DNA of 64,000 bases from a virus. A model generated the notes under the pieces. It saw nothing but the letters and a program-made list of their open reading frames with translations, ran no database searches and was not told the origin of the DNA. The DNA is taken from IMG/VR virus record IMGVR_UViG_3300032053_000049, positions 1 through 64,000 of that record. One strand, given 5' to 3'. Shown here one piece after another: positions 1,429 through 16,455 of this stretch. Every line of letters begins with the position of its first letter. Positions within the stretch are counted from its first letter, which is position 1. The position numbers and the translations under genes were made by a program.

Positions 1429-2409
1429 TTAATGATAAGGTAAAATCCGTTCCCACTCTATTTCTTTAAAACAATCTAAATCCGTGCCGCCGCCATATGA
1501 AATTGACGATTGCAACGCTTGTTGTATTTCATTCATTCTCTGTGAATATGTAAGACCTTCTTCTAATTCAAGAGTTCTACCTTCAACGTGTCGTCTTTCT
1601 CCTTTGACTTCATATGAAGTAGATCCACGATAAACTTTTTTTCCACCAACAATTTTAGCCGGTGAATCAATACAAGAAGCAAACCAGCCACCCGCCATTA
1701 TCATAGTGGCTCCGAAGGTCAATGCTTTAGCAATATCTCCATAATATTTGGCACCACCATCAGCAATAATTGGTTTAGGATTTAAACTAAAAGTTACTAT
1801 AGCATTAGCCTCATAAACAGAATGTAAAGTTGGAAGATGAAAACCAGTTTGATAACGAGTAGTACAGATCGAACCGCCTCCTATACCTACTTTAATAGCA
1901 TCAATATTTAAACCAGCAAGAAATTCCACTCCTTCAGCAGTAGCAACATTTCCAACAATAAGTTTTGAAGTAGGAAATTTCTCACGAACCCACGGTATGA
2001 CATCATCAACACTTTCATGATGAGCATGAGCAACGTCGATTGTTATATAATCTATTCTATAATTTTTATTACGAATATCATTTAAAATATTTTGATCTTT
2101 TTCATTAATACCCGTAGAAATGCTAATTAATTTCCAATTTTCTTCATTAGCTTTGGCTACAAAACTATGAATCGGCATATATTCTGTGTTATATTCTCCA
2201 AATCTATGAAAAATATAAAAATAATCATTTTCTGATAACCACTTGGCATTATCGTATGATATAACATCCTGCATATTTGCCGGAATAATTGGTAGTTTAT
2301 ATGTTCTTCCCAGAAATTCTACAGAAGTATCAGCCTTACTTCTACTTTGTAGATAAGAATATTTAGGGCGAAGACAAACCGTATCGTATGATAATAAAAA
2401 ATCTTTCAT
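1429..2409 (-). CDS. guaC: GMP reductase (GuaC2-type)
   Basis: Predicted to convert GMP to IMP with NADPH, recycling guanine nucleotides in the host cytoplasm. At 326 residues it has the usual length of the Firmicute GuaC2 type and lacks the CBS domains of IMP dehydrogenase. Visible landmarks are PANMQ (43-47), YITIDVAHAHH (121-131), GNVAT (153-157), the catalytic loop GIGGGSICTTR with Cys182, PIIADGG (213-219), GATMIMAGGWFAS and the GuaC2 ending SSISYGGGTDLD. It is free of inteins and looks intact. The start codon lies inside a long stem-loop (2401-2443), so translation may be controlled by RNA structure. IMP dehydrogenase is the main alternative but fits less well. A purine-salvage enzyme in a phage is an auxiliary metabolic gene. 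Confidence 0.88.
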   Translation of the reverse strand: MKDFLLSYDTVCLRPKYSYLQSRSKADTSVEFLGRTYKLPIIPANMQDVISYDNAKWLSENDYFYIFHRFGEYNTEYMPIHSFVAKANEENWKLISISTGINEKDQNILNDIRNKNYRIDYITIDVAHAHHESVDDVIPWVREKFPTSKLIVGNVATAEGVEFLAGLNIDAIKVGIGGGSICTTRYQTGFHLPTLHSVYEANAIVTFSLNPKPIIADGGAKYYGDIAKALTFGATMIMAGGWFASCIDSPAKIVGGKKVYRGSTSYEVKGERRHVEGRTLELEEGLTYSQRMNEIQQALQSSISYGGGTDLDCFKEIEWERILPYH

Positions 2410-3231: not shown

Positions 3232-4917
3232 TCATTTTATCCATATATATTTTAAATTTCCACAATCCCATATTCTATCCCAACCATTGTTTTTCATATT
3301 TTCCCATTCTGATAATGAAGAATTAAACATTAACAGTTTTTTTGAAAGAGTGTGTTTAGCAAATCCATATCGATGAAATCGTTTATAATTAATACCACGA
3401 TTAAAATACCAATAATTCGGTATTCCATCAGATATTTTTTTAAAACCAATTTTTTCATATATATTATTTTCTTTGGAAGTCCATCTCCTATCAGCATAAC
3501 TTGTTATTTTTGACGGATTATAGTTTTCAATGAAATAATTTAATAATTTACCTGCACCACCCAAAACATTGCATGTATTTAAAGAAGCATATCTAGATAA
3601 TTCATATTCATCCTTTTCGCTTTTTTGATTCATAAATATTCTTTTTTTACAAAAAGTCATTACTGCTACAAGTTCTTCATTATAAAATAATCCTAAATTT
3701 ATAGTAGATATATCATTTCCTTGTATATGATTTTCATTTAAAAAGTATTTTTTTTCATCAGGAATCAATATTTTAATTTTACATTTTCTAGCATATATTT
3801 TTTTCATTTGATTCACTCCTAATAAGTGTCTTAGTTTAGATTTTACAATTTCTTGTTTTTTTAACCATTCATCTTCAAAAATATGAATCAATTTTATATT
3901 TTTATTATTACAATCTATTAATTTTGAAAGATGATAATTTTTATCTTTATTTCCATTTATTTCTCCGTGCCAAAACAAACCATCGCATTCTATAGCAATA
4001 TTTTTTGATGGTATATAAATATCTAATTCTTTGTTATTTAATAAGATAGATTTAGTATTTTCTATAATAATTTCATTTGGCAATAAAAATTTAACATATT
4101 CAGTTATTTCTTTTTCAAATAAAGATGATCCGGATGATGGATAACACGTTAAGCATCTAGGAATTCTATCCCATCTTAACTGATAAGAAAAAATATTTTT
4201 ACAATATAAACATTCAAAATTATATTTTTTACCAACTCCTAAATATTCATCTTTTGTACATAATATTTTTACTTTATCTTTAAATCTATCAGATTGTAAT
4301 AAATTATTATAAAAATCATCTCTTTTAGTTTTACTTGTTTTTTCTGATATATCTTTAATTTTTTGGATATTATTTACACCATATTTTTCATTTATTATAT
4401 TTTCTTTTATATCTTGTCTTTCCAAAAACCATTCCGTTCCAAAATGTTTTAAACAAGTTTGTTTTTTCTTTTCTGATATTTCTTTTAGTTGAGAAATATT
4501 AGATACTCCATATCTATTCTTTATAGTAACGTTTCTTTTTTCTATTATTTTTCTATTAGAAAGACCATATTCAGTACCATAACGTTGTAAATTTGTGGAT
4601 TTAATTTTGTTAATAGTATTTGGATCAAACTGTGCACAAGAACAACAACACGTTCTCAAATAACCATTAGTAAAAGCAAAAAATGTAGTGATATTATTAC
4701 AAACGGGATTACAACATTTATTTTTTTCTAAATTATCATTTACTATGTGCCATATTCTTTGGGGTAAGATTGGATTTATGTCATCCAAAAAAGAAGTGAT
4801 ATCTAATATTTTTTGATATTCTTTTGAATATCCATATTTTTCAAACCACTCTTTTTTACACCGTTTTGAAACCAATTTGTTATTTATAATAAGATTAATT
4901 TGTATCCAAGTTTTCAT
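3232..4917 (-). CDS. large homing-endonuclease-like protein (Vsr-like core plus GNAT-like domain)
   Basis: A 561-residue free-standing mobile endonuclease of a type common between phage genes. The N-terminal region has Cys pairs (CCNPVCNN, CCCSC) and repeated units with the pattern RYGTEYGLSN, RYGVSNISQ, HFGTEWFLE, KYGVNNIQK that are likely DNA-binding. A zinc-ribbon pair (CLYCK, CLTC) precedes a Vsr-like nuclease core with IAIECDGLFWHGE (about 307-320). The C-terminal part (about 415-515), with LGLFYNEELVAVMTF and ELSRYASLN, resembles an acetyltransferase-like fold often attached to such enzymes. It lies between the prohead protease and the 245-residue protein. The stop is 22 bases before the next start. 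Confidence 0.8.
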   Translation of the reverse strand: MKTWIQINLIINNKLVSKRCKKEWFEKYGYSKEYQKILDITSFLDDINPILPQRIWHIVNDNLEKNKCCNPVCNNITTFFAFTNGYLRTCCCSCAQFDPNTINKIKSTNLQRYGTEYGLSNRKIIEKRNVTIKNRYGVSNISQLKEISEKKKQTCLKHFGTEWFLERQDIKENIINEKYGVNNIQKIKDISEKTSKTKRDDFYNNLLQSDRFKDKVKILCTKDEYLGVGKKYNFECLYCKNIFSYQLRWDRIPRCLTCYPSSGSSLFEKEITEYVKFLLPNEIIIENTKSILLNNKELDIYIPSKNIAIECDGLFWHGEINGNKDKNYHLSKLIDCNNKNIKLIHIFEDEWLKKQEIVKSKLRHLLGVNQMKKIYARKCKIKILIPDEKKYFLNENHIQGNDISTINLGLFYNEELVAVMTFCKKRIFMNQKSEKDEYELSRYASLNTCNVLGGAGKLLNYFIENYNPSKITSYADRRWTSKENNIYEKIGFKKISDGIPNYWYFNRGINYKRFHRYGFAKHTLSKKLLMFNSSLSEWENMKNNGWDRIWDCGNLKYIWIK

Positions 4918-4980: not shown

Positions 4981-6654
4981 TTATTTTATTTCAGATAAAA
5001 TATCTCTTATAATTGATTCTATTTTCATCCATTTATCGAAAATTGGGGGATTTATACTGGTTTTTACACCTTCGCTTAGATTACCAGCAGGAAACATAAA
5101 TGCTCCTCTCGTGCTTGGATTTGAAACAAAATCAAATGCGATTAGTTCGAAGTCATCTTGAACAAAATCGGCATCTTCATGTATACTCTTTTTAATTGTT
5201 CCAAGACCTCGGCTAGAAATACCTAAACGAATATTAGCACGAAATAATTCTCGTAAAATATTACCGTTTGGAGTAGGAAGAATTTCAATAGAGCCAATTA
5301 AGTCGTCCCCTTCCCAATGCATTTCAACAACATTATGAGAAACATTTTGAAGATTTACTACGGACGATTCCGGGTGATCGCAATTATGTGTCCACGTTAT
5401 TTTTCCATTATATCGCATTAACCAGGTGGAATTTGGAATGGTAACACAATATACATAATCATTAAAATCTACTAATTCAGCATATAAAAATCTACAATCC
5501 AAATAAATTCCCTTTGTAGTTTTTTCGTGTATTATATGTAAAGGTTTAGTGTTTTCAGCAAGAATCAATCTATCTGCAAAAATCCTATCTTCTGGTGTTC
5601 TTATGCTTGTAGTTGCACCACTTCCAAGTTTTAACATTATTTCAAACGTATCTTCAGAAAGTTGTGGCGATATAGTACAATATTCTCGAATTACTTTTCC
5701 ACAAACCATTCTATTTTTTCCATCTCCTAAAAGCATCCATTTCAATAAGATATTTAGTAATCTTACACTCCATTGTTTTGCGTATTCCGGTATTTTTTTA
5801 GTATAAGAATTACCAAGATCAAACAAATGGTTGTGTAAAAACTCATTAACAATAATGAACTGTCTATTATTTCGTAATACATATTTAAACGGAAGTCGTT
5901 TAAGAAGTTCTTCGATCATTGCTTTTGTATCTTCTTTAACTTGAGTTATTCCGACCAAATTACTTTTTCTTCCTCCTTTGGTTCCCGCACAATGTCCCTC
6001 GGCGAGATAGATACCTAAGAAAGCTGCCCAATCATCTGTCTTAATTTTTATTTCAGTATTGGGCAAAGTAAAATATTCATTATCTTCACCAATCCAATTT
6101 CCCGAATTCCTTATATAAGAATGAGAAACTCCAGAATCATTATTTTTGATTTTTTCATATAATTCTTCAGCAGTTATAACATATGGTTTATCATATCTAT
6201 CCCATAAAACTACTTTGTGTTTTTTTGTAACCATTATATCTAAGTTTTTTGAGTTATAAATATGAACCATCTGATCATTGTATAATTTTTCAACAGTATC
6301 GGTTACTTCTTGTATTTCTAACTGGTTATTACTAATGTTCAATGTAAAAACTTCGTCACCCACAGAAATATTTTCGATATTTTCCCATCCATCTTTTGTG
6401 AATATTTCTGTTCCTGCCGGCACACATTCCCCAATAGCCCGTCTTTCCTTTACAAAATTTTCTTCATATTTTTTTGCTTCTCGCATTAAAATATCTTTTC
6501 CATATACACGACCATTCTGGTTTTTTATTCCAGCACGTTGAAGAATTCCTTTCACGATAAGTTTTCGCATAGGATCTCTACTTGCTTCTTCAAAAATTAT
6601 ATCCCGAATTGGTTCAAAGGATATACAATCGATTAATAATTGTCTGTTGTCCAT
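4981..6654 (-). CDS. prohead protease (T4 gp21-like) precursor with intein
   Basis: Serine protease that cleaves scaffold and core proteins during head maturation. The precursor is 557 residues. Removing the intein (residues 77-424) leaves 76 + 133 = 209 residues, close to the 212 of T4 gp21. The joined sequence reads ...RRAIGE-CDHPESS..., matching the conserved G-E-x-D-H-P-E-S motif. His427 of the precursor is therefore the likely active-site histidine, and LGISSRGLG further on supplies the conserved serine region. Cys425 is the +1 residue of the intein. The gene follows the portal and core genes, as in T4 heads. Protease activity should depend on splicing because the intein separates the N-terminal strand from the catalytic part. 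Confidence 0.92.
   Translation of the reverse strand: MDNRQLLIDCISFEPIRDIIFEEASRDPMRKLIVKGILQRAGIKNQNGRVYGKDILMREAKKYEENFVKERRAIGECVPAGTEIFTKDGWENIENISVGDEVFTLNISNNQLEIQEVTDTVEKLYNDQMVHIYNSKNLDIMVTKKHKVVLWDRYDKPYVITAEELYEKIKNNDSGVSHSYIRNSGNWIGEDNEYFTLPNTEIKIKTDDWAAFLGIYLAEGHCAGTKGGRKSNLVGITQVKEDTKAMIEELLKRLPFKYVLRNNRQFIIVNEFLHNHLFDLGNSYTKKIPEYAKQWSVRLLNILLKWMLLGDGKNRMVCGKVIREYCTISPQLSEDTFEIMLKLGSGATTSIRTPEDRIFADRLILAENTKPLHIIHEKTTKGIYLDCRFLYAELVDFNDYVYCVTIPNSTWLMRYNGKITWTHNCDHPESSVVNLQNVSHNVVEMHWEGDDLIGSIEILPTPNGNILRELFRANIRLGISSRGLGTIKKSIHEDADFVQDDFELIAFDFVSNPSTRGAFMFPAGNLSEGVKTSINPPIFDKWMKIESIIRDILSEIK
5383..6426 (-). mobile_element. intein in prohead protease, LAGLIDADG type, 348 aa
   Basis: Runs from Cys77 to Asn424 of the precursor. 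Block A is CVPAGTEIFTKDGWENI, block B is MVTKKHKVV, and the end is ITWTHN followed by Cys+1, giving the standard His-Asn/Cys splice junction. DWAAFLGIYLAEGH and LLKWMLLGDGK are the two LAGLIDADG-type helices, with acidic residues kept (Glu in the first, Asp in the second). The homing nuclease may therefore still be active. Confidence 0.93.
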
Positions 6655-9561: not shown

Positions 9562-12500
9562 TTATTCATCTATTAGAATTTCTGGATCCATAATAGACTT
9601 GTTTCCATTGGTTTCCTTAATTAAATTTTTCTTTTCACTTCCCTTTTTTGACAGATAAGCATCTAGACTTTTGATTACATTTCCTTTTTTCATTGTAGCC
9701 ACTCTTTTTTTATTCTCTTCCTTTTTCTTAGCCTCATCTATTGATAATGGAGATTTTTTAGAAAATTTATGAGTTATAGCACTACCAGGACGAGGTTTAC
9801 TATTATTTTCTATATTTCCTAGAGGATCTTCTCCAAACGGATAATCTGCTCTAGCATCTTTTTCTCCACTTTGATCACGGTTTCTTTTATATTCTTCTGA
9901 GTGATCATCATTACTTTCCTCTACAGGATTTTCTATTACAACTTCTTTATCTTCATTTTTTTCAGTTTCCATAATTGGTGGGCCGCCTAGTCCTCCTAAT
10001 TCTCCACCAGGACCACCCAATTCAGATCCACCGATTCCCCCACCGCCGACCAAACCTCCACCTCCACCTAGACCTCCACCTCCTAAACCTAAATCTCCTC
10101 CACCACCCATACCCGGTTGAGCGTTAGGATTTGGATTGATCTTCTTGAACGGTTGAGCAGGATCATTACCTTCTTCCTCAATAGAACGAAAACGGTAAAG
10201 TTGCTTAGAATCATCCACAATTTCATCTCTAAGACCTTCAACATCGTCTTCTGATAAATTAAATACATTTTTATATACCCATTCCTTCGGAAAGAGTTTG
10301 ATTTCCATCATACGAGAAGCAACCTCAACTTTATTACTCCAAACCTCAATCTTCTCTTTTTCAAAGATGGTCGATGGATTAGTAAGTTCTAGTTTAAAAT
10401 TAACCAATGATTCATCCCTATATCCTTGGGCATATAAATGAACTATAGCAATTTTTTCTAATTCAGAAATGAGGATTCTTTGAACACGTTGAATTGTACG
10501 AGCAAAGCGAACGTCTTCTGAATTATGTATTATAACTCCTGCCGAAGTAGCAAAATTATGATAATTTTTAATAGTTATATCACAAGTATCTCTTTTTTCA
10601 GATAACCGTTCAATTTTTATTACTTTATGATTTTTTACATATTTTTTAGAAAAATCTCTTATAGAGTTATAACCGTTTTCATAAATCAATTTATGTATAT
10701 ATGCTTTTCCACATTCCAGAGATTTGGATACTAATTTTGTATTATATCCATTTTCAGTAGAAAATTGAACTAAATCAATAAATGTTGGTAATGGGTTATT
10801 AAATCCTTTAGATTTCCTAAATGCTTCCACCATTAATGAAGATTTTTTATATTTTTTATTATTTTCTCTCAATAATTCTTTTCTATTACCACTATCTTTT
10901 TTCCATTTATTTTTACACATTTCAGACCATTCTATAGAATTAAACTTATATTGAGCAAGATTTTTCTTTAACCGCTCTTTTTCCTCTGGATTATTATTTA
11001 TATAATTTATTCTTTCTAAAGATTTTTTCTTTCTAAACTCATCAGATTTTTTGTAAGCAATAGCTTCTGGAGAACAAAAAGTTTCATATGTATGATCTTT
11101 GTGAATATTTCTATGCTCAAGAAAAGTTAATCTTTTAAGATTTGGTGGGGAATTATCACTTCGCGAAAAATTATCATGGTGTACAATTACTAAATCATTT
11201 CTATTAAACTTAGTTTTATTTTTAATATGTGGTTGAATAAGTTTTCCATTAATATGATCATCAATACGTTTATGAGTCCATTCCCATTTTTCCGTAGCAG
11301 GATTATAAATCTGTTCATAATCTGATTTTCCATACATTAATTTATTTCTCTTATATAATGGCATCAAAGATTGTCCTTCGGTAAGATCTTTCGCTTCAAT
11401 CCATTTTCCATCTCTAGTCATAAAATTATGATCAGGAGTACAATCAATATATTCATTGTTATCAAGATGAACTCTAATAATATCAGTATTCATTCTTGTA
11501 TAACCAGCCCATTCTATTTCTCCCGGAACAATATTTTTTGTGGTTTCATCTATAGAATATACATAATTTTTAATACCAATTTCATAATCTTTAATTAATT
11601 CTTCAACAGTCTTGGTTATTCCACTTAATAAAGGTATTTTTGTTTCAGGAACAATGCATGCAAGCGTGGCTTTTCCACTTAGCTCAGATTCGTACCCTAA
11701 AAAGGCCTTTGGTATCTTTAAAGCAGCCATCATTTTATTACGAATGTATTCTACATCATCAATACCAGTCCATTCAATACCACTTAATGTTTCAATTGAT
11801 GTTCCACTATCAGTACCACGAACTGGCAAATAAAAATCCTCAACCATATTTTGTAAATTAAATCGAAGATTATAATCACCTGTATTTTGATCTACATAAG
11901 GAACTTTTTTAGTTTTAGAAATCATTTTTTCCATAAATGAATCAACATCTTGTGGAGGAATATTACCAATATCAATTTTGAAAATACGTCTTTCAGGAGC
12001 ACGCATAATACGATTTATAAGCATCGCGTCTTCCAAAAGTGAATTATGTACAACCACGCCATTAGCAATAAAATTATGGTTATCTGATTCTACCATTATA
12101 TCATAAACTGAAGAATTTTCTTCATAAGTTTCAATTGATAAAATTCTCTCAAAATCTAAATCATATTCTTGATTAAAATTAATATATAATTTATATGTAG
12201 GGAATCTATGAATACCCAGTTCATCAATAGTTTCTTCTGGTTTATAACATTTTACTTCATTACACATTATTCCCGATTGTTGACATAAATGTTTTAATTG
12301 AGTAATCATTTCTTTATTAGATAAACCTATTACCGACCATTTCCAAGAACCATCAGCATCAAATAATCCCTTTATAAATTCTTTCTTATTTTGTTTAGAT
12401 AAATTAAATACCCATTCTGGAATTCTCTTATTTCTAAATCCTGTTAAATAACCAGCGGTTTCCATTATGTATTTTAATTCTTTACTATAAGTTAAAGTAC

Positions 12501-15500
12501 ATCCTGGATGCGTATCATTATTTTTTGGATATGTTACGCAAATAGAATCTGAGTATTTTTTAATAATAGAAGTATATTTTTCATTTATTTCGCTATAAAT
12601 ACCATTAGCAAATCCAAGTCCATTTTTAGTTGTCCAACCATCACCCAACATAAAACCAAAAAATCTTATAAAATTTTCATCTAATGTAAATGTAAAATCT
12701 TTATTAACGAAAGAAGGATTTTTGGAATTTTTGATATGTAAAAAATACATTTCGTTGGTTATCTTAAATTCCTTTTGAACATCAACAAAAATATTAAATG
12801 GTAATGATTTATCACCCATTAAAAAAGCATGTACTTGTTTATAAGGATGATTTTTTATAGTAGATTTAATTCGGTTAATAATACCAACTTTATTATAATT
12901 TTTAATATACTCAATTCCAATATTATTAAGTTTAGCATAATACAATTTTGGATTTAATTTGATAGTATAATCTTTATTATCTGATTCTATTGTCGGTAAA
13001 ACCAAACAATCCCCATTCTTTTTATTTACAATTAAATCTTTAGCTTTTTTATACAAATAATTTCCATCACTATTTTTTACTAAAACATCATGGGTTTCAG
13101 TTAAATGTAAAACTCTATGTTTGGTTTTAACTTCCAATGTTTTTTTATTTCCAGTTTTTACACAATTTATAACCTTTGTTGGTTCAACCACGCATTTTTC
13201 GTAATTATAAGAATATACAACTGTATTCGGTTTAATATCTTTTATTTTTTGATATCCAATATTTGTCCATATTTCCGAATTTTGATGTAAACAAAGTTGC
13301 TTCCATACCCTACGGCCGCCCTCGATCATTGAATTGTGAACTATTATACCATTTGCAATGAAATTAGAATTTAACGATTCTACTTGAATATCATATGTTT
13401 CTTTTTCTCCTCTATCTTCTATTTTTCTAACAGGTTCTAAAAATATATTTTTATTATCAATAAAATTATACTTTTCCATTTGTTGCTTTTCATCCGCATC
13501 AAAATAATAATTAAAAGAATATTCTCCGTGCTTATTACATTTTATTCCACGAATTTCTACCTCTTCTATTTTATCATTTTCTTTTGGATTTGATGATTTT
13601 ATATTATTTAACTGAACTAATTTCTTAAAATCATAAATTAAATCTTTGTTACATAACATTATAGAATAACATTTTGCCCATTCATCTTCATGTGTCCAGC
13701 CATCAGCATTTCCCAACCCAATTATAAAAGCGTTTTGAATTTCATTATTTGATTCAAATACCCACGAAGGAATTCTTTTTTCTTTAGCATTATCACCAAA
13801 TCCCATATTTTTTAATATTTTATATAATCTTTTAGAATATAAAATAGCGGTTCTAGACTTGCCGCCATGAAATGTGATATTAGCTTTTTTTCCAGCATAT
13901 TTTTCTAATATTGACAAATATCTTTTATTCTGTTCTTCATCGACACCAAGAGAAAAACATACTCTATAATTTGCAGATATACCATTTTTATTAGGATAAT
14001 ATTTAGCCCAACCATCACCTACCATAAATCCAAAAAATTCAGCAAATTCATTATCTATCACATCTGGAATTTCATCCTTTTCTGGAACAAAAATAGGACA
14101 AGTAATTTGTTTATTATCTAATATATTTTTATCAATTAAAATGGTTTCTTTTGATTTTTTATTTTTATTAGAATTTATTACTAATAAATCACCGATTTTA
14201 ATATTCTCTGCAATTTTATATTCTAAATTTTTATTTTCGGTATTAAAAACTAAAAATCTATGATTTTTACTGGAATCCACAAAATTGTGTTGAGTAGATA
14301 TTCTAATGATTTCTTTTGTTCCAGAACAAATTTTATTTACAACCTTAGTTAATTCAAAATTTTTAGTTTTTGTATTAAAAGACCACACGAATTCTCCTAT
14401 ATCTAAATCCTTTATATATTTCGAACCAAACTCTGTATCAATATGTGTAGTAGATACTAAACACTTCCCATAGGGTAAGAAATTGCTGTCGCTCAGCAAT
14501 CTAAAATGAGCACACTCAAAGGATTCAAGAGTTTCTACTTGTGAAGTATCGGTAGGACGAATTTGAAATTTTACGTAATTTTTATTAAGAGGATCTGTAT
14601 TTTCGAGACGTTCAACATTATAAGCAGAGATTGGTTCTATTTGATAAACACCATATTCTGGTGAAATATACAATCTCATAAAAAAATCACCATATTTACA
14701 TGTATTTCTAGTCCATGACCAAAGATTATGTTCAATATTTAATACGTCATAAAAAAGATTAGTTAAAATACCTTTAATATTATCATCTTCAGCATTAACC
14801 ACTAATACTTTACCCATTTCGTTAATCGTGAGACAATTATGGGTAAAAAGTTTAGAACCATCTTGAGTTTCTATAGCATAAAGATGAGTAGAATTTCCAA
14901 CATTTACTAAATCATAAGCATTATACTCCCCATCTTCTTGAATTGATACTACACGATGATTATTTGAATTAATTAAATCTTTTATTCCTTTATATCCTTT
15001 AGATCTTATATACCACCAAAGTTGTTTATTTGTTAAATTATATTTACTAGATACTATTGATAAATTTCTTAAAATATTATTTCCACATTTAAGTTCTTCT
15101 AAAGCTAAGTTTTTAATATCAATAATAGGAATAGTTATACTATTTTCAAAAACATTTTTTAATTGATATATTCTATAAATATTATATTTTTTACATATTT
15201 GATTATTTATATCATTTCTATCTTTTCTACTAATATTATATTTTTTCCCTAAATCGACCGATTTTAATCCATTTATAATATCATTTTCATATTCATTGAT
15301 ATTTATTTTGTTTATTGAATTGAAATTCTTCCATCTACCATTTTTATTCCCAGAAAGTTTTTCTCCATACCCAAACATTCCATTTTTTAATCCATTTAAA
15401 CCATACATTTCTTTTCGTTCTAATTCTGTCATATTAGATATGAAGTTATTCATAAACGCTTTTTGTCTAACAGATACAAATTTTCGTTTTTCTTCTGTCC

Positions 15501-16455
15501 AATATTTACGATGTCCTTCTCTCGTTTTTTCTTTATATTCATGAGTTCTAGAATCATCTGCCCATAATTCTTTATTAAATTGAGAATGAACTAATCTATG
15601 CTCTTTATAAGTCATCCACTGTAATACAGATGGATCATTATTTTTTTTGTTAAATGAAGAATGGTGAATAACTTTGTCTTCAGATAATATTTTATTTCTA
15701 CATTCAATTAGTTCTGGAATATAATTAGCCACAATTCTATGAGTATATTTCCATTTTCCATTTTCTAATAACATTTCATACCCATTCATAAACTTATTTG
15801 TAGAAAGAGTAGTTCTAAACACTTTTAAAGAAGTTCCGTGTTCTAATTTATCGGTAGTTATAATTGTTCCATCTGATTTTACCCATTGATGATTAGCCGT
15901 ACATTTTATTTCGGTTCCGTCATCTAATAAAACTTTTAACATTTTCTTTTTTCCATTTAATGCTACTTTTTCACATTTAGAAGGAATAAATCTTCCATTT
16001 TCATCAATAGAATACACCCAAAAATCTTTTCGGTTCTGTAAATAAAGATCTGAAATTTTTATTTTTTCTCCGTTTAATAGTGGGATAATGGTGTCTCCAT
16101 GAACACACTCATCTGAATAAATATCCAATGCACTAGCGATGATGGGATCAAGGTCCATTGTGTCGTAATCTCTAAACAAATCAATTCTCGCAGCTTGATA
16201 GGCTAGTGAAAAGTCTCTGGTATAAGCATTATAAGAAGTTGAACGGACACGATTAAAACGATCACGAAGACTGTTTCTGTCTGTCGCATACATTAAATCA
16301 CTGGTGTCTTTAACTTTTAATTTTTTTCCACCAACATTTCTAACTACTACGCCTGCAGAAAACAACTTTTTTAGACGAGCGAATAAAGATTTTTGTTTTA
16401 CATCGATTTCGTCGCCATTTATTCCTGAGCTTGGTCTGATAATGTCGTTATTCAT
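9562..16455 (-). CDS. portal protein (T4 gp20-like) precursor with four inteins
   Basis: The portal forms the dodecameric head vertex through which DNA is packaged. The precursor has 2297 residues. Exteins are 1-116, 541-664, 1042-1054, 1472-1599 and 1979-2297, which join into a 700-residue protein (T4 gp20 has 524). Diagnostic portal sequence includes GGRRVWKQL-SLLEDAM, RIMRAPERRIFKIDIGNIPPQ, VEDFYLPVRGTDSGTSIETL and RNKMMAALKIPKAFLGYE. The extra length is a C-terminal tail with a Gly-rich stretch (GGGG repeats) and a charged end. All four inteins end in His-Asn, with Cys, Ser, Ser and Ser at +1. It follows TerL directly. A failure in any of the four splicing steps should block head assembly. 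Confidence 0.95.
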   Translation of the reverse strand: MNNDIIRPSSGINGDEIDVKQKSLFARLKKLFSAGVVVRNVGGKKLKVKDTSDLMYATDRNSLRDRFNRVRSTSYNAYTRDFSLAYQAARIDLFRDYDTMDLDPIIASALDIYSDECVHGDTIIPLLNGEKIKISDLYLQNRKDFWVYSIDENGRFIPSKCEKVALNGKKKMLKVLLDDGTEIKCTANHQWVKSDGTIITTDKLEHGTSLKVFRTTLSTNKFMNGYEMLLENGKWKYTHRIVANYIPELIECRNKILSEDKVIHHSSFNKKNNDPSVLQWMTYKEHRLVHSQFNKELWADDSRTHEYKEKTREGHRKYWTEEKRKFVSVRQKAFMNNFISNMTELERKEMYGLNGLKNGMFGYGEKLSGNKNGRWKNFNSINKININEYENDIINGLKSVDLGKKYNISRKDRNDINNQICKKYNIYRIYQLKNVFENSITIPIIDIKNLALEELKCGNNILRNLSIVSSKYNLTNKQLWWYIRSKGYKGIKDLINSNNHRVVSIQEDGEYNAYDLVNVGNSTHLYAIETQDGSKLFTHNCLTINEMGKVLVVNAEDDNIKGILTNLFYDVLNIEHNLWSWTRNTCKYGDFFMRLYISPEYGVYQIEPISAYNVERLENTDPLNKNYVKFQIRPTDTSQVETLESFECAHFRLLSDSNFLPYGKCLVSTTHIDTEFGSKYIKDLDIGEFVWSFNTKTKNFELTKVVNKICSGTKEIIRISTQHNFVDSSKNHRFLVFNTENKNLEYKIAENIKIGDLLVINSNKNKKSKETILIDKNILDNKQITCPIFVPEKDEIPDVIDNEFAEFFGFMVGDGWAKYYPNKNGISANYRVCFSLGVDEEQNKRYLSILEKYAGKKANITFHGGKSRTAILYSKRLYKILKNMGFGDNAKEKRIPSWVFESNNEIQNAFIIGLGNADGWTHEDEWAKCYSIMLCNKDLIYDFKKLVQLNNIKSSNPKENDKIEEVEIRGIKCNKHGEYSFNYYFDADEKQQMEKYNFIDNKNIFLEPVRKIEDRGEKETYDIQVESLNSNFIANGIIVHNSMIEGGRRVWKQLCLHQNSEIWTNIGYQKIKDIKPNTVVYSYNYEKCVVEPTKVINCVKTGNKKTLEVKTKHRVLHLTETHDVLVKNSDGNYLYKKAKDLIVNKKNGDCLVLPTIESDNKDYTIKLNPKLYYAKLNNIGIEYIKNYNKVGIINRIKSTIKNHPYKQVHAFLMGDKSLPFNIFVDVQKEFKITNEMYFLHIKNSKNPSFVNKDFTFTLDENFIRFFGFMLGDGWTTKNGLGFANGIYSEINEKYTSIIKKYSDSICVTYPKNNDTHPGCTLTYSKELKYIMETAGYLTGFRNKRIPEWVFNLSKQNKKEFIKGLFDADGSWKWSVIGLSNKEMITQLKHLCQQSGIMCNEVKCYKPEETIDELGIHRFPTYKLYINFNQEYDLDFERILSIETYEENSSVYDIMVESDNHNFIANGVVVHNSLLEDAMLINRIMRAPERRIFKIDIGNIPPQDVDSFMEKMISKTKKVPYVDQNTGDYNLRFNLQNMVEDFYLPVRGTDSGTSIETLSGIEWTGIDDVEYIRNKMMAALKIPKAFLGYESELSGKATLACIVPETKIPLLSGITKTVEELIKDYEIGIKNYVYSIDETTKNIVPGEIEWAGYTRMNTDIIRVHLDNNEYIDCTPDHNFMTRDGKWIEAKDLTEGQSLMPLYKRNKLMYGKSDYEQIYNPATEKWEWTHKRIDDHINGKLIQPHIKNKTKFNRNDLVIVHHDNFSRSDNSPPNLKRLTFLEHRNIHKDHTYETFCSPEAIAYKKSDEFRKKKSLERINYINNNPEEKERLKKNLAQYKFNSIEWSEMCKNKWKKDSGNRKELLRENNKKYKKSSLMVEAFRKSKGFNNPLPTFIDLVQFSTENGYNTKLVSKSLECGKAYIHKLIYENGYNSIRDFSKKYVKNHKVIKIERLSEKRDTCDITIKNYHNFATSAGVIIHNSEDVRFARTIQRVQRILISELEKIAIVHLYAQGYRDESLVNFKLELTNPSTIFEKEKIEVWSNKVEVASRMMEIKLFPKEWVYKNVFNLSEDDVEGLRDEIVDDSKQLYRFRSIEEEGNDPAQPFKKINPNPNAQPGMGGGGDLGLGGGGLGGGGGLVGGGGIGGSELGGPGGELGGLGGPPIMETEKNEDKEVVIENPVEESNDDHSEEYKRNRDQSGEKDARADYPFGEDPLGNIENNSKPRPGSAITHKFSKKSPLSIDEAKKKEENKKRVATMKKGNVIKSLDAYLSKKGSEKKNLIKETNGNKSIMDPEILIDE
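10522..11658 (-). mobile_element. portal intein 4, HNH type, 379 aa
   Basis: Residues 1600-1978 of the precursor, between KATLA and SEDVRFAR. Block A is CIVPETKIPLLSG, block B is CTPDHNFMTRDG, and the end is AGVIIHN followed by Ser. The nuclease insert holds an HNH core (VIVHHDNFSRSDN and LTFLEHRNIHKDH), followed by a helical DNA-binding part. Its layout parallels portal intein 1. Confidence 0.93.
12043..13293 (-). mobile_element. portal intein 3, LAGLIDADG type, 417 aa
   Basis: Residues 1055-1471. Starts CLHQNSEIWTNIGYQKIKDI, has HLTETHDVLV as block B and ends NFIANGVVVHN followed by Ser. LAGLIDADG helices are RFFGFMLGDGW and FIKGLFDADGS, both with aspartate kept. Its C-terminal block closely matches that of intein 2 (YDIMVESDNHNFIANG against YDIQVESLNSNFIANG), so the two are relatives. 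Confidence 0.93.
13333..14463 (-). mobile_element. portal intein 2, LAGLIDADG type, 377 aa
   Basis: Residues 665-1041. Starts CLVSTTHIDTEFGSKYIKDLD and ends NFIANGIIVHN followed by Ser. LAGLIDADG helices are EFFGFMVGDGW and FIIGLGNADGW. Block B appears as SSKNHRFLVF with Ser in place of the usual Thr. Only 13 extein residues separate it from intein 3. Confidence 0.93.
14836..16107 (-). mobile_element. portal intein 1, HNH type, 424 aa
   Basis: Residues 117-540. Starts CVHGDTIIPLLNGEKIKISD, has KCTANHQWVKSDG as block B and ends SKLFTHN followed by Cys. The insert contains an HNH core (KVIHHSSFNKKNNDPS and WMTYKEHRLVHSQ) and a long C-terminal DNA-binding region with NUMOD-like helices (KYNLTNKQLWWYIRSKGYKG). 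It is the only portal intein with Cys at +1. Confidence 0.93.

What the first reader, a model, noticed from the sequence alone, without database searches (positions are those of the whole stretch)
10522..16107. Portal protein precursor carries four inteins
Four precise intein insertions, each with block A, block B and a His-Asn end, split one portal gene into five exteins. The 2297-residue precursor should splice to a 700-residue portal, so about 70% is removed. Proteins with four inteins are rare. Total splicing failure would give no portal, so head assembly depends on all four reactions.
Basis: partly seen in the sequence, partly recalled or inferred. Interest (0 to 1): 0.82.

Follow-up and report, generated by a model that had tools for sequence, protein, structure and literature searches.

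The report
Phage portal gene with four inteins
The gene for the DNA gateway of an uncultured T4-type phage is interrupted by four self-splicing protein parasites (inteins) that make up 70% of the precursor, and relatives show that this gene is a hotspot in which at least ten different positions have been invaded.

Summary
Confirmed. ORF 9562-16455(-) encodes 2297 aa: four inteins (424, 377, 417 and 379 aa; 69.5%) between five exteins that join to a 700-aa T4 gp20-type portal. Each insert matches the Intein_splicing profile and has Cys1, a block B His, a terminal His-Asn and a Cys/Ser at +1. A model of the weakest-scoring one (I1) has a Hint fold. Inteins 1 and 4 look HNH-type; 2 and 3 are LAGLIDADG. 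Close relatives (L008: 86% identity) lack all four and show the empty sites. Inteins 2 and 3 are separated by an extein of only 13 residues. Wider sampling: T4-type portals of environmental phages are an intein hotspot, with 56 distinct inteins at ten sites. Intein trees sort by insertion site, while presence on the portal tree is patchy, as expected of site-specific homing. One other portal also has four, at a mostly different set of sites. One near-identical pair shows the endonuclease deleted between short repeats, leaving a mini-intein. Four inteins in one protein has precedent (Trichodesmium ribonucleotide reductase), and portal inteins are known in mycobacteriophages, so this is a new, unusually rich member of a known kind. 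Splicing and cutting are inferred, not shown.

The parts
9562..16455 (-). complete portal precursor ORF, 2297 aa, T4 gp20-type
16108..16455 (-). extein 1 (116 aa), N-terminal region
   Evidence: 89% identical to intein-free L008
14836..16107 (-). intein 1, 424 aa, site 117 (DE|C); HNH-like endonuclease
   Evidence: Intein_splicing 7e-9, HNH phrog 3e-6, Hint fold of model, s117 clade
14464..14835 (-). extein 2 (124 aa)
   Evidence: 92% identical to L008
13333..14463 (-). intein 2, 377 aa, site 241 (PYGK|S); LAGLIDADG endonuclease
   Evidence: Intein_splicing 2e-18; s241 clade of 13; family profile hits DnaB intein, PI-PfuI and PI-PkoII structures
13294..13332 (-). extein 3, only 13 aa (SMIEGGRRVWKQL), first half of the stem helix
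   Evidence: T4 gp20 about 252-264
12043..13293 (-). intein 3, 417 aa, site 254 (KQL|S); LAGLIDADG endonuclease
   Evidence: Intein_splicing 1e-18, LAGLIDADG_3 1.3e-4
11659..12042 (-). extein 4 (128 aa), stem and clip
   Evidence: Portal_T4 3e-37
10522..11658 (-). intein 4, 379 aa, site 382 (ATLA|S, tunnel loop); HNH-like endonuclease
   Evidence: Intein_splicing 3e-22, HNH phrog 1.6e-5, s382 clade with L178
9565..10521 (-). extein 5 (319 aa), C-terminal part with Gly-rich tail
   Evidence: Portal_T4 1e-10

Best explanation
A T4 gp20-type portal gene of an uncultured tailed phage carries four class 1 inteins at four conserved positions. The 2297-aa precursor is translated as one chain. Each Hint domain folds, performs the Cys1 acyl shift, the transesterification to the +1 Cys or Ser and the cyclisation of its terminal Asn, and the five exteins are ligated to the 700-aa portal subunit (inferred). 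Each intein also holds an endonuclease domain (HNH-like in 1 and 4, LAGLIDADG in 2 and 3) that would cut intein-free portal alleles at its own site during co-infection, so that repair copies the intein in: homing (inferred from allelic families, patchy presence and selection on the domain). Inteins 1, 2 and 4 are residents of their sites that are kin to inteins at the same site in other phages, not copies of one another made in place. The T4-type portal gene of this phage group is an intein hotspot with at least ten such sites.
For: Profiles and motifs. Empty-site alleles L008, L027, L028. Splicing residues are invariant in the s117 family (C1, T70/H73, D399, H423 N424) and in the s241 family (C1, H68, D358, H376 N377). 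Carriers always have Cys, Ser or Thr at +1, although intein-free alleles at the same position are mostly Ala or Gln at sites 378 and 382. The intein tree sorts by site: 11 changes, minimum 10, shuffled mean 35.7. Presence is patchy on the portal tree: s241 15 changes for 18 carriers; L126 carries two inteins and is 98.4% identical to intein-free L049. dN/dS estimates are 0.07-0.36 for Hint and endonuclease parts of inteins 1 and 2, and 0.09 for the Hint of intein 4. Model of I1: Hint region pLDDT about 95, best PDB matches are inteins. No RNA intron family. No stop in 1597 intein codons.
Against: No splicing or cutting is measured. The HNH calls rest on PHROGs hits and motif, not on a Pfam hit above cut-off. 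Intein 3 is not firmly grouped with the other site-254 inteins; its dN/dS is higher (up to 0.55) and partly saturated. Most pairs are divergent, so the dN/dS values are rough.
Confidence: 0.93

Rival explanations
1. The inserts are inteins, but one or more has lost splicing activity, so the gene is a dying allele or a second portal gene elsewhere does the work.
For: Only a 72.7-kb record is held, so a second portal cannot be excluded. Ser replaces Thr in block B of intein 2.
Against: All splicing residues and +1 nucleophiles are kept. The same Ser recurs in the s241 family. Hint parts of inteins 1, 2 and 4 look selected. The gene sits next to the terminase, as in relatives.
Confidence: 0.05
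2. The four inteins are kept because splicing is a regulatory switch that times portal formation (conditional protein splicing), rather than as parasites only.
For: Conditional splicing is reported for mycobacterial DnaB inteins (PMC6195587, PMC7360933, abstracts). Sites sit in working parts of the portal: wing-stem border, stem helix, tunnel loop.
Against: Close relatives do without any; presence is patchy and sites differ between phages.
Confidence: 0.07
3. The inserts are group I or II introns, or an assembly artefact.
For: Some gut phages interrupt genes with introns (PMC7886860, PMC12363816).
Against: Inserts are in frame, end in His-Asn before Cys/Ser and match Hint profiles; no Rfam intron hit. 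The same sites are occupied in many independent contigs, and the other four-intein portal was assembled twice with 100% identity.
Confidence: 0.01

Closest known systems
Trichodesmium erythraeum ribonucleotide reductase with four inteins (Liu et al. 2003, cited in PMC1635734)
   Same: Four inteins in one essential protein, all to be removed by splicing
   Different: Cellular enzyme whose gene also has group II introns; here a phage structural protein, no RNA intron found
Portal inteins of cluster C1 mycobacteriophages (PMC5050341, Table 1)
   Same: Inteins in a phage portal gene
   Different: Six inteins counted in one phage subcluster; no multiple inteins per portal mentioned in the text read. 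Here T4 gp20-type portals, ten sites, up to four per gene
TerL inteins of mycobacteriophages, seven insertion sites (PMC5050341)
   Same: Phage packaging gene invaded at many sites
   Different: Another gene; sites spread over several terminase families; splicing and cutting were tested there, not here
Haloarchaeal MCM helicase with four intein sites close together (PMC10643990)
   Same: Neighbouring inteins in one gene, each with its own endonuclease
   Different: Archaeal replication gene; interference of homing was tested there by experiment
LR756508.1, 484-kb uncultured phage (INPHARED; L001)
   Same: Portal with three inteins, two at the window's sites 241 and 254
   Different: Inteins at 241 and 254 are minimal (150 and 141 aa); the third site lies 4 residues upstream of the window's site 382; the record carries no annotation

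Membership tests
Class 1 intein (Hint) | N-terminal Cys or Ser | tested here: met
   All four begin with Cys
Class 1 intein (Hint) | Block B Thr-x-x-His | tested here: met
   TANH, SKNH, TETH, TPDH; Ser for Thr in intein 2, His invariant in its family
Class 1 intein (Hint) | C-terminal His-Asn and +1 Cys/Ser/Thr | tested here: met
   HN|C, HN|S, HN|S, HN|S
Class 1 intein (Hint) | Hint fold | tested here: met
   Profile hits for all four; model of I1 matches intein structures; the other three were not modelled
Class 1 intein (Hint) | In-frame insertion with uninterrupted homologues | tested here: met
   L008, L027, L028 are intein-free at all four sites
Class 1 intein (Hint) | Splices in vivo or in vitro | not testable with these tools
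   needs expression
LAGLIDADG homing endonuclease (inteins 2, 3) | Two LAGLIDADG motifs with acidic residue | tested here: met
   FFGFMVGDGW/IIGLGNADGW and FFGFMLGDGW/IKGLFDADG; LAGLIDADG_3 in I3; profile of the I2 family hits PI-PfuI and PI-PkoII
HNH endonuclease (inteins 1, 4) | HNH motif | tested here: inconclusive
   HNH phrogs 3e-6 and 1.6e-5, HH...N...H conserved in the I1 family, but Pfam HNH_3 below cut-off for I1 and absent for I4
T4 gp20 portal family | Portal_T4 profile and portal fold | tested here: met
   Portal_T4 3e-37 on extein 4; low-confidence model of the L008 portal matches T4 gp20 best, 2e-18
Active homing element | Endonuclease cuts the empty site and the break is repaired from the intein allele | not testable with these tools
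   indirect only:

The most novel reading that the evidence does not exclude
The T4-type portal gene of environmental large phages is a standing arena in which ten or more intein lineages compete, hop to neighbouring sites within the gene and co-reside up to four at a time, with two of them 39 bases apart so that homing at one should affect the other; the number carried may set when functional portal appears.
Probability: 0.25. Interest if true: 0.68.

Novelty: new member of a known kind. Interest (0 to 1): 0.52.

Why it matters
A structural gene that phages of this type need for head assembly carries about 4.8 kb of splicing parasites here, while other carriers have relatives up to 98% identical with none. 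With full, endonuclease-less and empty alleles of the same sites in hand, questions about intein gain, decay, competition between neighbours and cost to the host gene become directly testable in a phage system. Practically, gene finders will miss or misname such portals, which serve as phage markers.

Tried and rejected
RNA introns: no Rfam hit in 64 kb. Copies of one intein spread within this gene: rejected for inteins 1, 2 and 4, which the tree puts with inteins at the same site in other phages; open for intein 3. Co-conversion footprint: within 20 codons of the four sites the window shares 36% of codons with L008 against 57% elsewhere (p about 1e-4), and GC3 is raised there in the window more than in L008; but L008-L028, both without inteins, show a weaker tendency of the same kind (p = 0.05), and the other carriers tested show no significant signal, so it is only suggestive. 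A circular-shift test of GC3 alone gave 4-10%. The portal model is of low confidence (pLDDT 58) and was used only for topology. The Bacillus phage SP-15 hit is not annotated as a portal.

Full report
WHAT IS THERE. The frame 9562-16455 on the minus strand is open for 2297 codons. Four inserts of 424, 377, 417 and 379 aa (1597 aa, 69.5%) divide a protein of 116 + 124 + 13 + 128 + 319 = 700 aa. All four inserts match Pfam Intein_splicing above its cut-off; exteins 4 and 5 match Portal_T4 above its cut-off and extein 2 just below; extein 4 also matches the PHROGs portal family (4e-35). All four inserts start with Cys, have a block B His, end in His-Asn and are followed by Cys or Ser.

EMPTY SITES. 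Three IMG/VR contigs (L008, L027, L028; portals 86-88% identical to the window's joined exteins) encode the uninterrupted portal, and the joined window exteins align with L008 across each junction. So the boundaries are observed, not only predicted. L028 lies in a 365-kb contig with no Intein_splicing match anywhere.

THE ENDONUCLEASES. Inteins 2 and 3 have two LAGLIDADG motifs each; the profile of the intein 2 family matches DnaB inteins, PI-PfuI and PI-PkoII. Inteins 1 and 4 match HNH phrogs. Intein 1, the weakest by sequence, was modelled: its Hint part has pLDDT about 95 and its best PDB matches are inteins. dN/dS estimates for inteins 1 and 2 are 0.07-0.27 in the Hint part and 0.18-0.36 in the endonuclease part, and 0.09 for the Hint of intein 4; intein 3, compared only with distant kin, gives up to 0.55. 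Both parts therefore look selected, the splicing part more strongly. This is a simple count on divergent pairs and is rough.

WHERE THE SITES LIE. In L008 numbering the window's sites are 117, 241, 254 and 382. By alignment with T4 gp20 and the domain limits of Sun et al. (PMC4493910), 241 falls at the wing-stem border (about T4 251|252), 254 inside stem helix alpha5 (about 264|265) and 382 in the tunnel loop (about 397|398; loop 374-398). Residues around the ten sites found are more conserved than average (0.79 against 0.69; 22 of 2000 random sets as high). Extein 3, between inteins 2 and 3, has just 13 residues; those two sites are both occupied in only one other portal, LR756508.

A HOTSPOT. 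Pattern and profile searches of viral contigs gave 128 distinct portals, 32 with inteins; 56 distinct inteins sit at ten sites: 99, 103, 108, 117, 162, 241, 254, 375, 378, 382. The search was aimed at carriers, so 32 of 128 is not a frequency. Sixteen carry one, ten two, four three and two four; some rows are near-copies and some contigs are cut. The second four-intein portal, L178/L179, has sites 99, 108, 162 and 382, was assembled twice with 100% identity, and shares only site 382 with the window.

HOW THEY MOVE. On a tree of the Hint domains the insertion site changes 11 times (the minimum is 10; shuffled mean 35.7): inteins are kin by site. On the portal tree presence is scattered: 15 changes for 18 carriers at 241, 8 for 11 at 117, 8 for 9 at 99. 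L126 (two inteins) and L049 (none) are 98.4% identical. Site-specific horizontal movement, that is homing, explains this; the cutting itself is not shown. A few jumps to a neighbouring site are visible: L125's site-117 intein groups with the site-99 kind, and L151's site-375 intein is sister to the site-382 kind. L004 and L007, nearly identical, differ by a 792-nt deletion between CATAGAAT repeats that removes the endonuclease of the site-117 intein and leaves a 165-aa mini-intein.

THE +1 RESIDUE. In every carrier the residue after the intein is Cys, Ser or Thr, whereas intein-free alleles mostly have Ala at 378 (107 rows) and Ala or Gln at 382 (86 and 22 rows). This is what functional splicing requires; related sequences are not independent, so no probability is given.

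HOW IT MOST LIKELY WORKS. Shown here: the anatomy, the empty alleles, the site-wise kinship, the patchy presence and the signs of selection. Inferred: that all four inteins splice out of the precursor by the class 1 pathway, that their endonucleases cut intein-free portals in co-infections, and that head assembly waits for the ligated 700-aa portal. A regulatory use of splicing is possible but has no support beyond the position of the sites, and close relatives do without any intein.

KNOWN OR NEW. Four inteins in one protein are known from Trichodesmium ribonucleotide reductase (cited in PMC1635734), portal inteins from C1 mycobacteriophages and seven terminase sites in mycobacteriophages (PMC5050341), two inteins in a crAss-like TerL (PMC7886860), and four sites in haloarchaeal MCM (PMC10643990). 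I found no paper in the held library that describes T4-type portals as an intein hotspot, but that library is not complete. I file it as a new member of a known kind: rich, but not a new mechanism.

Noticed in passing
window 4981-6654 (-), insert about 5383-6426: A fifth intein: the prohead protease (Peptidase_S77) is split by a 348-aa insert starting CVPAGTEIF and ending WTHN|C. Relatives L180 and L181 also have protease inteins, in L180 at a slightly different site.
   Followed up: partly
window 3232-4917 (-): A free-standing 561-aa homing endonuclease (phrog_3339, 4e-117) lies directly downstream of the intein-bearing protease gene.
   Followed up: no
L178 and L151, portal site 162: Inteins that begin with Pro instead of Cys/Ser and end KN|C; L178's has a Cys in block F (VYCMTV). 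They resemble class 3 inteins, but no Trp of the WCT motif was recognised.
   Followed up: partly
L004 8298-9584 and L007 1721-2215: Near-identical inteins, one lacking the endonuclease through a 792-nt deletion between CATAGAAT repeats: a mini-intein newly formed by deletion (or an assembly effect).
   Followed up: yes
L180 1-1707: The terminase gene beside the three-intein portal also holds the end of an intein (HAVVHN|C), so terminase, portal and protease are all interrupted in one phage.
   Followed up: no
window 9562-16455: Exteins near the four sites have raised GC3 (0.35 against 0.14) and share fewer codons with intein-free relatives; possible co-conversion footprint, controls mixed.
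   Followed up: partly
window 1429-2409 (-): An IMP dehydrogenase / GMP reductase family gene (PF00478, 2e-50) in the phage.
   Followed up: no
L001 portal site 378 versus window site 382: Related inteins occupy sites only 4 residues apart (378 and 382) in different phages.
   Followed up: partly
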